Origin: Stentor roeselii
Lineage: Eukaryota; Ciliophora; Heterotrichea; Heterotrichida; Stentoridae
Reading direction: 5' to 3'
NCBI GenBank assembly: GCA_006503475.1
Contig: RSEH01000177.1
Location: 34,809 to 98,808 of the forward strand
Length of the DNA: 64,000 bases
In this document: in pieces, positions 30,595-62,219 of the stretch
Position numbering within the stretch: the stretch's first letter is position 1
Layout: the number at the start of each line of letters is the position of its first letter
Notes under the pieces: model-generated
The model's input: the letters and a program-made list of their open reading frames with translations, nothing else
Told to the model about the DNA's origin: nothing
The model's database searches: none
Translations under genes and position numbers: made by a program

Positions 30595-31026
30595 TTATAT
30601 GAGATTAGAAAATGATTTTGAATTAGGGTTGATGAGGGGTTGAAATGATAGATTTTTTATTGAGGATGTATTTTGATATTTTCATATAAGTTTAAATATC
30701 AAGGGAAGATATGAAGAAGTTTATATTGATACCCTTCTGTTCCTTTTATACTCTTAGATCACTTTGTTTTATTAAGGAAGTATTATTCTGCTATTTTCCT
30801 ATGGGCTTGAATATCAAGGCAAGATATGAAGAAGTTTAATATTAATAGATTCCTGTTCCTTTTATTCTTTAAGATCACTTTTATTCATTAAGAAATTATT
30901 ATTCTTCTATTTTCCTCTAATCTTAAATATCAAGGCAAGATATCAAGAACTTTAATATTAACACCTATTCCTTCAATTCATTAAAATCACTAATTCCCCA
31001 GTCAATCAATATAAAGAAAACTCTCA
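30595..31026. other. Divergent intergenic region with tandem repeat
   Basis: Region between the Josephin and PTEN-like starts. It is largely filled by the repeat at 30677-30992. The rest is AT-rich, without recognised elements. Confidence 0.6.
30677..30992. repeat. Imperfect 115-116 bp tandem repeat, ~2.7 copies
   Basis: Copies begin at about 30677, 30792 and 30908 with TATTTTC. They share the words AATATCAAGG, AAGATATGAAGAA and TTCCTTTTAT with AGATCACTTT. The third copy is truncated and most diverged. The repeat lies in the shared 5' region of two divergent genes. Confidence 0.85.
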
Positions 31027-52949: not shown

Positions 52950-53648
52950 TCATAAACTGTTTTTCCTCACTATTTTTATTCTTTTTGGAGAAGGAGAATA
53001 AGAAATTGATGAAAAACTAGAAGCTAGGTCGTAACTTCCTGGACCTGGAGTCGAAAGTCGATTCAGGTTGTCTGCTGAGACTCGTGCGCCGAATGAAATG
53101 TTGGAATATCGGCTGTTTTCTACGAGAGTGTGCTTTGGGTTGTAGGCACCTGGAGGTGGTGTGCTGTGTCTGGCTATTGATGAATGACGGCTTTTTATTG
53201 AGCAGGAAAGTCCCTCACCTATGCTAGTCTTTAAATTGTAAGTCCCCGGGCCAGGGGTAGTCCATCGATTTTCATCATTTCTCTGCTTCGACGGTGAGAT
53301 CTTTCCTCCTACAATATAACGTTCTAAACTTCCAGGGATCGAATAAGCCGTTGAAGGAGGCGCATCTTTTCCCCGAGGATTTGACGGCTGCCAACGATTT
53401 CCGAAGCCGAAACCAGCACGTCTTCCTTTGCCGATGACAGAATCGAGTGAAAGAAATTCAGATGAAGGGTCTGGTCTTTTTTGATGAAAGCGATTCGCTT
53501 TGCTGAAGGACCATTTCACGCTTTGCTTACCAATCAAACTGTTTACTAGGTTTATCTCGTTCATGGTCTTTTTGAGTACTTTACTCGCGACTTGTTTCTC
53601 TTTTTTGGAAACTGAGACTGAACGAGTTTTCTTGTGTTTTGCTAGCAT
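52950..53648 (-). CDS. SHIPPO/STPGR-repeat axonemal protein, 232 aa
   Basis: Basic N-terminus, then repeats of the Pro-Gly type: TTPGPGTYNLK (~130), TPPPGAYNPK (~164) and TPGPGSYDLA (~202), plus FGFGNRW-type aromatic links. STPGR/ODF3-type repeats lie along microtubules in cilia and flagella. Stop is TGA. Its 5' flank contains the telomere-like minisatellite. Confidence 0.86.
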   Translation of the reverse strand: MLAKHKKTRSVSVSKKEKQVASKVLKKTMNEINLVNSLIGKQSVKWSFSKANRFHQKRPDPSSEFLSLDSVIGKGRRAGFGFGNRWQPSNPRGKDAPPSTAYSIPGSLERYIVGGKISPSKQRNDENRWTTPGPGTYNLKTSIGEGLSCSIKSRHSSIARHSTPPPGAYNPKHTLVENSRYSNISFGARVSADNLNRLSTPGPGSYDLASSFSSISYSPSPKRIKIVRKNSL

Positions 53649-54359
53649 TTTTATGGGATTTAAATGATTAGATTATTGGACTGAGGGTATATTTTTGAGG
53701 TTCATGAAAAGTTATTTTTTGTGTTTTGAAGGTCTTTTAGGGAATTGAGAGGTGAAGAGAGTTTTTTTTGGATTTGGTAAAAGAGGTGTTGGGTGTTAGA
53801 AAATTTTAGTGGTTTTGAGATCAGGGTGTTAGGGTGTTGAGTTTTTGATATTTTAGGGAATAGGGTGGAAGATTGTTTATTTTTAGGATTTGGGTTTAGA
53901 TGATTTTATGTTTTTGAAGTTTAGGGTGTTAGATGATTTCATATTTTTAGAGATTTGGGTGTTAGAGCGTTTTGAGATCTTTTGGAGATCAGGTGTTAGA
54001 TGGTTTTTTATTTCTAGAGATTTGGGTGTTAGAGCGTTTTTATATCTTTTCGAGATCAGGGTGTTAGATGGTTTTATATTTTGAGAGATTTGGGTGTTAG
54101 AGCGTTTTTATATCTTTTCGAGATCAGGGTGTTAGATGGTTTTATATTCTAGAGATTCGGGTGTTAGAGAGTTTTGATATCTTTTCGAGATTAGGGTGTT
54201 AGATAGCTTTAATATTTTGGAGAATAGTGTGTAAGAGGTTTTGATAATTTTGAAGATCAGGGTGTTAGATAGTTTTAATATTTTTGGAGAATAGGGTGTA
54301 AAAAGTTTTGATAATTTTGAAGATCAGGGCGTTAAAAACTTTAATAATTTGAGAGATTA
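53649..54359. other. Intergenic region dominated by minisatellite
   Basis: Lies between the STPGR gene start (minus, left) and the 3' end of the CnoX-like gene. It is strongly G/T-rich on the plus strand. A frame at 53890-54084 is a by-product of the repeat. Confidence 0.7.
53780..54340 (+). repeat. ~32-33 bp minisatellite carrying GGGTGTTAG telomere-like motif
   Basis: Monomers of ~32-33 bp alternate in two forms (a ~65-bp dimer): GAGATTTGGGTGTTAGAGCG and GAGATCAGGGTGTTAGATGG. About 12 copies of GGTGTTAG are intact, and the right end degenerates. At 53824 two copies of the word run together as GGGTGTTAGGGTGTTGAG. TGTTAGGG is the complement of CCCTAACA, the telomere unit I recall for heterotrich ciliates. 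Confidence 0.85.
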
Positions 54360-55334
54360 CTATGAAAATTTTATGTAAAGACTTTGCATTTTTTTCCTTG
54401 TCGGCTTCGTCAATAGATGATCATTTCCCAAATCATTAATTATCTGAAGAACTGTTTTTTGTCCAAACCCTTTAAAAGACTTTTCCTTTTCAATAATACC
54501 AAGACTAATCTCAATCGCTTGCTCATTCAACCCTGCAGAATGATAAGCAAGTGCAAGTTTCGACAATAATTCAAAATTATCAGGATCTTGACTCAAATCT
54601 CTCTTCAACTCATCAATTTTCCCCTGATTTTCCTGATCTTTTTCAAATTTTTTCAGTACTTTTTCTTCAATTTCAATTATTTCCTGATCGAAAAATCCTT
54701 GATTTTTCGCATTTTCTAGAATTTCCTTCGTTTTTTCAAGATCTCCCATCAAAAAGTAAGCCTGAAGTAATCCTTTAACAATCCTGGCCTGATACTTTTC
54801 ACTAAACTCTTTATACCCTTTCGCTTCTTCAAAGCTTTTAATAGCTTCCAAGAACTTCTTATCTTTCACAAACTCTTCCCCAGCCATTAAAAGTCCTTGA
54901 AAAACGTTTTCATCACTGACAAGTCCAGCGACTAACTTTGCATCTTCAACGATTTCATTAATATTTTCTTCTGTGATGATTCCTTCAACTTTACTGAAAA
55001 CATTTCCTTTATTGATTAAAAAAAGAGTTGGAACCTTGAAAATACTGAGTGCAGAGGCAAGTTCATTCATTTCGTCGATGTCCATTCTTGCGTAGTTCCA
55101 TTTTCCCTCGTCAAGCATTGCCTTTTGCTCTAACACCCTGACAATCTTCCTGCAGGGAAGAGACCAGTTGGCATAAGCTTGTAAAATTACTGGTGAAGGA
55201 CTTTTTAACACTTTGCTTAACCAGACCTGGATTGAGTCTACTTCAAAAATGAAGTTTTTGTATTCTTCCATTGCGGAAAATGCAACTTTTTGGATTTCTT
55301 GATGACTGACGTGCCGAAACACCCTGCTTATCAT
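54360..55334 (-). CDS. CnoX/YbbN-like thioredoxin-TPR co-chaperone, 324 aa
   Basis: The N-terminal ~25 residues (MISRVFRHVSHQ) could be a mitochondrial presequence. A thioredoxin domain follows (~30-140), with the active site WSLPCRK, i.e. S-x-x-C instead of CxxC, and the cis-Pro motif KVPTLFL. TPR-like helices run from ~145. The C-terminal DLGNDHLLTKPTRKKMQSLY matches the LTxxYRRxL-type end of bacterial CnoX (YbbN), a holdase that works with GroEL. The loss of the first Cys argues against a dithiol reductase role. Confidence 0.88.
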   Translation of the reverse strand: MISRVFRHVSHQEIQKVAFSAMEEYKNFIFEVDSIQVWLSKVLKSPSPVILQAYANWSLPCRKIVRVLEQKAMLDEGKWNYARMDIDEMNELASALSIFKVPTLFLINKGNVFSKVEGIITEENINEIVEDAKLVAGLVSDENVFQGLLMAGEEFVKDKKFLEAIKSFEEAKGYKEFSEKYQARIVKGLLQAYFLMGDLEKTKEILENAKNQGFFDQEIIEIEEKVLKKFEKDQENQGKIDELKRDLSQDPDNFELLSKLALAYHSAGLNEQAIEISLGIIEKEKSFKGFGQKTVLQIINDLGNDHLLTKPTRKKMQSLYIKFS

Positions 55335-59337: not shown

Positions 59338-62219
59338 GATTGGTAGTTTTGGATTAGAGATAATAGGTTTTTAGAATTTTTTTTAGAAGGATTTTGGATA
59401 TGTTATCAAGATATTTTCATCAATTGAACTGATCAAGCATGCAATTGACTTGATTTATTAGTTTCCTTTCAAAGCTGTTGAAAAAATACACCATTTATAT
59501 GTTAGAAGCATCAACTGAAAAAGCACCCTTCGAATTTCATTTAGCTCACTAAGTTAAATATCTATCCTAAGTACATCTTTTATCAAATCAAAACTTAACG
59601 AAACTTAAATTTTCGATTATTTCGAAGTTTAATTTAAAATTTGTGATTTTTTAAAGATTTAATTTTTCCAGATGTGAATTTTTTAAGCTTTGCATTATTT
59701 GATATAATTAATTGAGGCACATGAAAATTAAAAAAAAATTGAGTTATCTTGGTTTAAACTCTTAATGAAAAGAATCTCTTTTCATTTATCTTATTAGAAT
59801 AACTCTTAAAAATCTAATTATTACGATTCGAAATCTTTCAGATAATCCAGGCTCCTGATGATTTTGGTAAGTTTTGATGAAAGTCAATTATGTTAATTTT
59901 TGAAAGACTATCTTGAAAATAAACAAAGAAGATTATAAACCTTGAATATTTTTTAAAAATCTGATCTATTAAAAAATTGTTTTGAGAGACTTTGTCAAAG
60001 AAAAATTATTTTTCATGTTTTTTGTCTTTGTTGAAATTCTTTTGTTTAAGCGAGTATTGATGGAATGGATAGAAATAATTGGATATAGGTTGTTTTAAAA
60101 GTTAAAAAAGATAAGATATTTAAAGAAAAGGGCTCAAATGTTGCGCGATTTATAGTAAAATAAATCAATTTCTATTCTTTAACAAATTTTGATTAAATTA
60201 TATTTGGTTTGAATTAAGATTCTATCATGCTGTTAAAAATTTAATTTTTTTTAAGTGGATATTCTTTATCTCAGTTTCATAGATATTAAATTGAAGACTT
60301 TTATTCTTTTTCTAGAATTATTTTTATATAAGATCAGGTCTTACTCTTAATTCTTATATGATTCATTTTATGATTTTAATAAATGTATTTTTAAGGTTTA
60401 CATGTGTTTAATATTAGTTTTCTTGGTTTTTTCTTCGATTATATAATTTTTCAAGACCTCACAATAGAATGATTAAACTTAACAACCCAAGTTTACTTGC
60501 CATACGCTAGACAGAAGAATGAGAATGTGTAAATTATGATAAATTAAAAAATTTAGAAATCAAACAATTCAACTTTATCTACAAGCCAGGACTATAAGAG
60601 CTATTTTATTGTTATGTAAATAAATAGCGCTAAAATGAGTATAGATTGTATTTTGATTTTTTTACTTTTGAATCCTCAAATATAATCAAATTTTCTTCTA
60701 TTACTATATCAATATTACGGTAAAAATTGACAGATTTATCAGGAACTATTAATGAATAAAATGTGCGAACTCATGAATTTATTTTGATTCAAAAATTTCA
60801 CAAGTATTTAAAATCATATATGATATCAAATAATTTAAATATTCATTTATAATTTGAATAGTTTTGTAATTTATCAAATCTATAAGAGTTTCATACTTTA
60901 TATCAACAATACAATAGAGTCAAATTTAAAGGCTTTTAAGATATTATATTGTTTGTAGAATAAGAAGAGATAATATCGATCAGTATACTAGAATAGCATT
61001 TTTTATATTCACTTTATTAATCACTGTGAAAAGGTTACCAAAATGAAGTGATTTAAACAATAATTTAAACTGAATATGTATGCCTGTTTAAATTAATAGT
61101 AAGAAAGATCATGATCCTTCAATAATAAACATTTAATCGAAGTTTTACTGTCTTAACAGAAATTCATGCATAAATCCAGTCTAAAATTCGATTTATCATA
61201 ATCCTCAGCATTTTTTGATTGATACATAATTTTAAAATAATGAATAGGGATGTATCTAGATATTGCAAAATATTAGAAAAGATTTTTTTAAAATAATGAA
61301 TAGGGATGTATCTAGATATTGCAAAATATTAGAAAAGATTTTTCGCATGTTTCTTTATTTTGAAATTTTAACGGTTTTAAATTTGTGAACAAGTCCTCAG
61401 TTTAACTTTCACAATTTGATTTTTTCTCACTACTTTAGTGTTTACCAGAGAAAGTAGCTAAAATAGGGAATTCTAAAAAAGCTTCTCTTTGATTAAAAGA
61501 GTATTATATAATCTGGACTCTATACTGAAATATTTGCACAAGTTAATTTACTGTTTTTGTTTTTGGGATTAGTTGATGTTTGCTTAACGGTATCCATTTT
61601 AAATTTACTTAGAATTGATTTGGTTAATTTTTCATATAGCTAATGAAACTTATAAATTTTTAGACAATCTTAAATCCGTTCAGTATTTTTCTAATACTGT
61701 TTAAGTACTAAATTTTAGAGGTAATAAGATATGAAGGACCATTTAATGACCTTATGTAAATATTCTTTATTAACTTTTTTGTGTTTAAAGTTAGATTGAA
61801 GGCTAAGTAATAAACTTGGAAATCTTGGATAGACTTTAGAAACTTAAAAAGTAAGTATAAATATAAAAATTCTAAAAAAAATTACTTAATTCTTCATTAA
61901 AAGTCTATGGGATCTGAAAATCAAATATATTTCATAAAGAAATTTCATATAGATAGTTTTAAAATAACCCAGTGATTTACATTCACACTCTCATTATATT
62001 AAAATGCGAGAAACTTAAAAAGTAAACACAATTAAAAGTTTTTTGTTCAAATAATGAGTTGTAATCTGTCTTGGTTTTATAAATGACATAAAATTTATTA
62101 TTAAAGTATATTAAGTGATAAGGGAATCTTCATGTGAACCTCGCAATATTCTGCAACCCTAAACCTTAAACCACATAAAAATCCCTCCAAAATTCACACA
62201 AAAAAAAATTCAATAAAAA
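59338..62219. other. 2.9-kb gene-poor AT-rich region
   Basis: No ORF with recognisable coding character on either strand and no RNA gene. The only structure I see is the perfect 56-bp tandem duplication at 61231-61342. The last ~70 nt before 62220 are A/C-rich, like a plus-strand 5' flank. Confidence 0.6.
61231..61342. repeat. Perfect 56-bp tandem duplication
   Basis: Unit 61231-61286 is repeated without change at 61287-61342 (begins TTTAAAATAATGAATAGGG, ends TTAGAAAAGATTTT). The identity in a region under no visible constraint points to a very recent event or an assembly artefact. Confidence 0.9.

What the first reader, a model, noticed from the sequence alone, without database searches (positions are those of the whole stretch)
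53780..54340. Interstitial telomere-like minisatellite (GGGTGTTAG every ~32-33 bp)
About a dozen copies of GGTGTTAG recur at ~32-33 bp spacing in a 65-bp dimeric pattern, and at 53824 two words abut as GGGTGTTAGGGTGTTGAG. TGTTAGGG is the complement of CCCTAACA, the telomere repeat I recall for heterotrichs such as Blepharisma and Stentor. An interstitial, regularly spaced, non-tandem version is unusual. It could mark a germline chromosome-breakage or telomere-addition site, an old fused end, or a binding array for a telomere-type protein upstream of the STPGR gene.
Basis: partly seen in the sequence, partly recalled or inferred. Interest (0 to 1): 0.75.

Follow-up and report, generated by a model that had tools for sequence, protein, structure and literature searches.

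The report
Minisatellites built on a telomere word
In the genome of what looks like a heterotrich ciliate, about two dozen separate stretches of tandem repeats, lying between genes where this could be checked, share one short word that is a single unit of the organism's own telomere repeat, which hints that the telomere machinery helps to seed or hold such repeats inside chromosomes.

Summary
The array is real: 17 units, mostly 32-35 bp (67-bp dimers), 11 with the exact word GGGTGTTAG, in a 711-bp gap between two genes. The word is a piece of the assembly's own telomere repeat, (GGGTGTTA)n, which caps contig ends. It is not a lone minisatellite. Scans of the 44.4-Mb assembly for two GGGTGYTAR words (not followed by G) with gaps of 10-71 bp give 181 pairs against 1 for the reversed word. 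The pairs overlap; they form 47 clusters, 23 with three or more words. Representative spacers from 16 arrays are mutually unrelated (120 pairs, none beating all shuffles). One other telomere phase (TTAGGGTG) gives 5 pairs and no array of its own. In four of four diverged arrays tested the word is better conserved than its spacer, and in seven arrays words abut at the 8-bp telomere period (exactly in six). This is a shared-core minisatellite class whose core is one telomere unit. My best model, inferred: telomerase leaves one or two units at a healed break, and the word then anchors tandem expansion. Main rival: a binding array for a telomere-type protein. Breakage-site and fused-end readings are not supported: none of 8 telomere-capped ends has spaced words in the adjoining ~1.5 kb.

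The parts
53649..54359 (.). 711-bp intergenic gap holding the array; 53649-53790 is the non-array part (3 C in 142 bases on the + strand)
   Evidence: ORF ends, base counts
53791..54359 (+). Minisatellite of 17 units, one GGGTGTTAG-type word per unit, ending at the stop codon of the thioredoxin-TPR gene; the last three words before the end are mostly degenerate
53878..54334 (+). Part with 67-bp dimeric higher-order period
   Evidence: TRF 67 x 6.9; the repeat finder
53823..53838 (+).
53924..53932 (+). Example of the exact word GGGTGTTAG; others start at 53791, 53824, 53957, 54024, 54059, 54092, 54127, 54159, 54194, 54260
52950..53648 (-). Flanking gene with sperm-tail PG-rich (SHIPPO/STPGR) repeat; its 5' end faces the array
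   Evidence: PF07004 E 1e-09
54360..55334 (-). Flanking thioredoxin-TPR gene; its stop codon abuts the array
   Evidence: PF00085 and PF14561, ORF

Best explanation
The array is one member of a genome-wide class of minisatellites that share a core and little else. The core is one unit of the telomere repeat in a fixed phase, [A/T]GGGTGTTA[A/G]; the rest of each unit is local sequence that differs between arrays. Mechanism: (1) inferred: telomerase adds one or two GGGTGTTA units at a broken end exposing (T)A, and the break is then joined instead of capped, leaving a word between genes; (2) inferred: the word, bound by telomere proteins or pairing with other copies, stalls or misaligns replication, so that word plus flank is duplicated; (3) shown: units multiply in tandem, the word is better conserved than the spacer, and words can abut at the 8-bp telomere period; (4) inferred: arrays persist because DNA between genes tolerates them. 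The class itself I hold at about 0.9; the confidence below is for the class plus the telomerase-seeded, word-anchored origin.
For: Word equals one telomere unit of this assembly. 89 + 92 word pairs v. 1 + 0 for the reversed word; 23 clusters of three or more words. Spacers from 16 arrays mutually unrelated. A second telomere phase gives 5 pairs and no array of its own. Word v. spacer mean identity: C90 0.88 v. 0.56; C31 0.76 v. 0.44, C290 0.90 and 0.80 v. 0.70, C289 1.00 v. 0.68. Words abutting at 8 bp in C13, C135, C289, C179, C206, C232, nearly in C90; C13 spacings of 45 = 37 + 8. At 8 of 8 telomere-capped ends the tract starts with A before GGGTGTTA, at 7 with TTA, the phase of the word. 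Telomerase-made internal repeats at breaks with bases in register are argued for mammals (PMC2246262, passages); internal telomere tracts stall replication and rearrange in yeast (PMC11626172, abstract).
Against: No empty site, sister species or read evidence, so seeding by telomerase is untested. In many arrays the base after the word is A, not the telomeric G (9 of 16 representatives), so part of the word set may not be telomere-derived. Word conservation fits selection on a binding site just as well. Units were delimited by the word (though cut inside the spacer), which favours the word; leaving out the three ragged units of C90 the word ranks 2 of 25 windows, not 1, and in C290 the better word ranks 3 of 67. 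Only one other phase out of seven was scanned. A tract start at TTA also fits telomerase starting at T.
Confidence: 0.45

Rival explanations
1. Functional binding arrays: a double-strand telomere-type protein (TRF/Tbf1/Rap1-like, recalled names) binds GGGTGTTAR between genes as an insulator, regulatory or replication element, and selection keeps the words.
For: Word better conserved than spacer in 4 of 4 arrays tested; fixed phase; word separated by unrelated spacers.
Against: No fixed place relative to genes: 5' and 3' of genes at C90, between convergent ORFs at C13, between divergent ORFs at C289, same-strand genes at C135; spacing between strict words 12 to 118 bp; isolated words mostly coding (18 of 20); no protein was looked for.
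Confidence: 0.27
2. One dispersed repeat family: all arrays descend from one ancestral minisatellite that spread and diverged.
For: Common word and a bias at the two bases before it (A/T, T/C).
Against: 0 of 120 spacer pairs beat all 300 shuffles, 6 at p<0.05 as expected by chance; unit lengths differ widely; the window array has no full-length relative.
Confidence: 0.1
3. Chance: an ordinary minisatellite that happens to contain the word; the class is an effect of searching for that word.
For: Any genome with many minisatellites has some containing a given 8-mer, and the search was for this one; the number of minisatellites in the assembly was not counted.
Against: 181 overlapping pairs v. 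1 for the reversed word; 5 pairs v. 1 and no separate array for another telomere phase; abutting words at exactly 8 bp in six arrays.
Confidence: 0.08
4. Chromosome-breakage or telomere-addition site, or an old fused end.
For: Telomere word; Blepharisma has 46,705 potential internal telomere addition sites (PMC9942806, passages).
Against: 0 of 8 telomere-capped ends have spaced forward words in the adjoining ~1.5 kb (one end has a lone reverse word with a mismatch); no long or head-to-head telomere tract in the window array. Only 8 ends were looked at.
Confidence: 0.07

Closest known systems
Short interstitial telomeric sequences made at double-strand-break repair in mammals (PMC2246262, passages read)
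   Same: Telomere units inside chromosomes; bases in register at the insertion point; exact units
   Different: There the insert is a run of telomere units; here one unit (sometimes two) is repeated together with 10 to 70 or more bases of local sequence. Insertion itself was not seen here
Core-sharing minisatellites (Jeffreys-type human minisatellites; recalled, no call)
   Same: Unrelated arrays share a short G-rich core
   Different: Here the core is the organism's own telomere unit in one phase; variability between individuals is unknown
CEB25-type minisatellites with telomere-protein sites in yeast assays (PMC3486850, passages read)
   Same: Tandem repeats with telomere-like motifs that recruit a telomere protein (Cdc13) and promote rearrangement
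   Different: A human array tested in yeast whose resemblance is described as fortuitous; here a native class with the host's own repeat
Alternative telomere addition sites of Blepharisma (PMC9942806, passages read)
   Same: Same telomere repeat (permutation of CCCTAACA); internal sites linked to telomerase
   Different: Those are read ends; no array is mentioned in the passages I saw, and reads were not available here

Membership tests
Core-sharing minisatellite | Tandem units of about 10-100 bp | tested here: met
   17 units of about 33 bp; 23 clusters elsewhere
Core-sharing minisatellite | Same core in arrays with unrelated spacers | tested here: met
   16 representative spacers unrelated; word common by search design, with reversed control 1 v. 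181
Core-sharing minisatellite | Copy number varies between individuals | not testable with these tools
   one assembly only
Interstitial telomeric sequence | At least two contiguous telomere units inside a chromosome | tested here: met
   16 bases at 53823-53838, the minimum; the rest of the array has single units
Interstitial telomeric sequence | Array is a run of telomere units | tested here: not met
   one unit per ~33 bp
Subtelomeric repeat | Lies beside telomeres | tested here: not met
   array 9.6 kb from a contig end without telomere; 0 of 8 capped ends have spaced words
Chromosome-breakage / telomere-addition site | Telomere-bearing reads end at the site | not testable with these tools
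   no reads held
Telomere-protein binding array | Word kept against spacer drift | tested here: met
   4 of 4 arrays tested
Telomere-protein binding array | A protein binds the word | not testable with these tools
   needs gel shift or pull-down

The most novel reading that the evidence does not exclude
Telomerase writes minisatellites: in this ciliate single rounds of telomerase at healed breaks leave one phase-locked GGGTGTTA unit between genes, and that word anchors repeated duplication of its neighbourhood, so that about two dozen unrelated arrays are convergent products of the telomere machinery acting inside chromosomes.
Probability: 0.35. Interest if true: 0.8.

Novelty: new variant of a known kind. 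Interest (0 to 1): 0.58.

Why it matters
How minisatellites are born, and why unrelated ones can share a core, is an old open question. Here the core can be named: the organism's own telomere unit, in one phase, in 23 word clusters of one compact genome. That makes a link between telomerase (or a telomere protein) and internal tandem repeats directly testable, by comparing sister species and by mapping breaks and telomere additions during nuclear development.

Tried and rejected
Isolated words as a cis-element: GGGTGTTAGH is 517 v. 73 for the reversed word and v. 50-82 expected from window Markov models of order 1-4; another telomere phase is 79 v. 73. I first took this as a motif. Then 18 of the first 20 listed sites outside the C13 array proved to lie in stop-free frames of at least 116 codons, so codon use can explain it and I do not count it.

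Full-length relative of the window array: only itself. RNA family: none in the window at gathering score. RNA fold of 53924-54230: + strand z -2.75 with an empty centroid, - strand z -0.71; not pursued. Coding array: stretches of 74-82 codons are open on either strand when TGA is read as Trp, but window genes behave as standard-code genes. Strand asymmetry of 16 spacers: G>C in 10, G<C in 5, p 0.11; T>A in 11, T<A in 2, p 0.01; suggestive only.

Literature: the listings showed no title or abstract opening on telomere-core minisatellites in ciliates; the library holds open-licence papers only, and lists were cut at 20 in most searches. The Stentor genome paper is not held.

Full report
OBSERVATION. 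The window is C90:34809-98808 of a 44.4-Mb, 522-contig assembly (G000), the right-hand 64 kb of a 98.8-kb contig. Between an STPGR-repeat gene (52950-53648, minus) and a thioredoxin-TPR gene (54360-55334, minus) is a 711-bp gap. From 53791 to 54359 it holds 17 repeat units, 32-35 bp each from 53891 on, with a 67-bp dimeric period. Eleven units have the exact word GGGTGTTAG. Shuffles of the window give 0.62 copies of GGTGTTAG on average; 13 were found and 0 of 100 shuffles reached that. At 53823-53838 sixteen bases match the telomere repeat without a break. The last, degenerate unit abuts the stop codon of the thioredoxin gene.

IS IT THE TELOMERE WORD? Yes. (TGTTAGGG)3 has 547 matches in the assembly; the listed places lie at contig ends wherever the contig length is known or the place is in the first bases of a contig; C40 has it at both ends. 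The repeat is a permutation of CCCTAACA, reported for Blepharisma (PMC9942806, passages). Of the window's 35 stop-free frames of at least 250 codons, 18 end in TAA, 13 in TAG and 4 in TGA; of 12 frames of at least 400 codons open under TGA=Trp, 8 have no TGA at all and the other four have theirs near the frame ends. So the host is probably not Blepharisma, which reads UGA as Trp. A standard-code heterotrich such as Stentor is a guess from memory.

IS IT ALONE? No. The whole window array matches only itself, but the word exposes a class. Three words GGTGTTAGH in a row at gaps of 12-42 bp occur only on C13 and C90 (12 matches, 0 reversed). Two words give 20 pairs at 12-42 bp (1 reversed) and 28 at 43-73 bp (1 reversed). 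The variant GGGTGYTAR not followed by G gives 89 pairs at 10-40 bp (1 reversed) and 92 at 41-71 bp (0 reversed). These pairs overlap: the same words serve in several. Grouping words within 200 bp gives 47 clusters, 23 with three to twelve words: C12, C13, C35, C64, C65, C79, C90, C91, C93, C135, C179, C182, C206, C230, C232, C250, C268, C289, C290, C306, C391, C402, C437. The three-word C35 cluster is the weakest. Of the 24 two-word clusters, one is the far end of the C135 array, one (C288) is a contig-end telomere, one (C357) lies in the first 150 bases of its contig, one (C368) looks coding by eye, and one (C31) is on inspection an array of 12 word-like units; most of the rest were not read.

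ANATOMY. Strict words within clusters are 12 to 118 bp apart. With one representative unit from each of 16 arrays (15 of the 23, plus C31), 0 of 120 spacer pairs beat all 300 shuffles and 6 reach p<0.05, as chance gives. Before the word only A or T stands at -1 (11 and 5 of 16) and only T or C at -2 (11 and 5); the A/G after it was imposed by the search. I aligned whole units of four diverged arrays, cut within the spacer: mean identity of word v. spacer is 0.88 v. 0.56 in C90 (word ranks 1 of 25 windows; 0.88 v. 0.66 and rank 2 without the three ragged units), 0.76 v. 0.44 in C31 (rank 2 of 23), 0.90 and 0.80 v. 0.70 in C290 (rank 3 of 67), 1.00 v. 0.68 in C289 (rank 1 of 55). The units were delimited by the word, which leans towards it. 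Words abut at exactly 8 bp in C13, C135, C289, C179, C206, C232, and nearly so in C90. In C13 the spacing is mostly 37, with 45 (37+8) twice and 44 once.

PLACE. Four arrays were read with ORFs on both sides, and all four lie between them: C90; C13 (ORFs convergent); C135 (HMG-box ORF and a weakly kelch-like ORF on one strand); C289 (divergent ORFs, the right-hand one with a CTLH domain and an ambiguous start codon). C31 lies 5' of an ORF that resembles the start of VPS13 (below Pfam's cut-off), and C290 has no stop-free frame of 45 codons over the array; their other flanks were not read. In 10 kb around C13 the gap with the array is 556 bp, the five other gaps 10-175 bp; near the window array the other gaps are 21-181 bp, but one without an array is 829 bp.

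PHASE. Another cut of the repeat, TTAGGGTG not followed by T, gives 3 pairs at 12-42 bp (1 reversed) and 2 at 43-73 bp (0 reversed): one is a contig-start telomere (C413), one lies in the C402 cluster of the class itself, three are isolated pairs. The other six phases were not scanned. At 8 of 8 telomere-capped ends the tract starts with A before GGGTGTTA, at 7 with TTA: the word is in the phase in which telomeres start here, though a start at T fits as well.

A WRONG TURN. Isolated GGGTGTTAGH words look sevenfold enriched (517 v. 73 reversed; expectation 50-82), another phase does not (79 v. 73). But 18 of 20 isolated sites lie in stop-free frames of at least 116 codons, so codon use can explain the excess. 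The arrays, not the singles, carry the case.

MECHANISM. Shown: tandem arrays, unrelated spacers, one telomere unit as common core, better conservation of the word, 8-bp abutments, one other phase without arrays. Inferred: telomerase puts the word there at a healed break, as argued for mammals, where breaks expose bases in register with the repeat (PMC2246262, passages); the word then promotes expansion, as internal telomere tracts impede replication and rearrange in yeast (PMC11626172, abstract) and a minisatellite with telomere-protein sites does (PMC3486850, passages). The main rival is selection for binding of a telomere-type protein. Against a simple regulatory role: no fixed place relative to genes and no fixed spacing. 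Against breakage sites: 0 of 8 capped ends have spaced forward words in the adjoining ~1.5 kb; one end has a lone reverse word with a mismatch. Reads could not be looked at.

LIMITS. The array controls are the reversed words and one other telomere phase; a tandem-repeat census would be the proper null. The scans need two near-exact words, so decayed arrays such as C31 are undercounted. No sister genome was available.

VERDICT. The finding is larger than reported: a genome-wide shared-core minisatellite class whose core is one telomere unit, a new variant of known kinds.

Noticed in passing
window, whole: Genes behave as standard-code genes (TGA among the stops), while the telomere repeat is that reported for Blepharisma, which reads UGA as Trp.
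   Followed up: partly
window 61230-61343; 30669-30961: Other tandem repeats without the telomere word in their printed unit: a perfect 56-bp duplication and a 116-bp unit x 2.5.
   Followed up: no
window 60001-62000: Stretch of unusually low G+C (0.228 against 0.28-0.42 in the other 2-kb bins).
   Followed up: no
window 53649-53790: The gap next to the array has only 3 C in 142 bases on the + strand (40 G), a strong strand asymmetry that continues in the array.
   Followed up: partly
G000:C40: Telomere repeats at both ends of a 249.8-kb contig, apparently a complete macronuclear-type chromosome.
   Followed up: no
G000:C9, C288, C413 ends: Some contig-end telomeres hold variant units such as GGGTGGTA, possibly sequencing error or true variants.
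   Followed up: no
G000:C250:39223-39497: Densest array of the class: 12 strict words, many 14 bp apart; not read.
   Followed up: no
G000:C402:87448-87787: Array of the class in which a neighbouring variant reads TTTTAGGGTGCTAATG, so the word tolerates a C.
   Followed up: no
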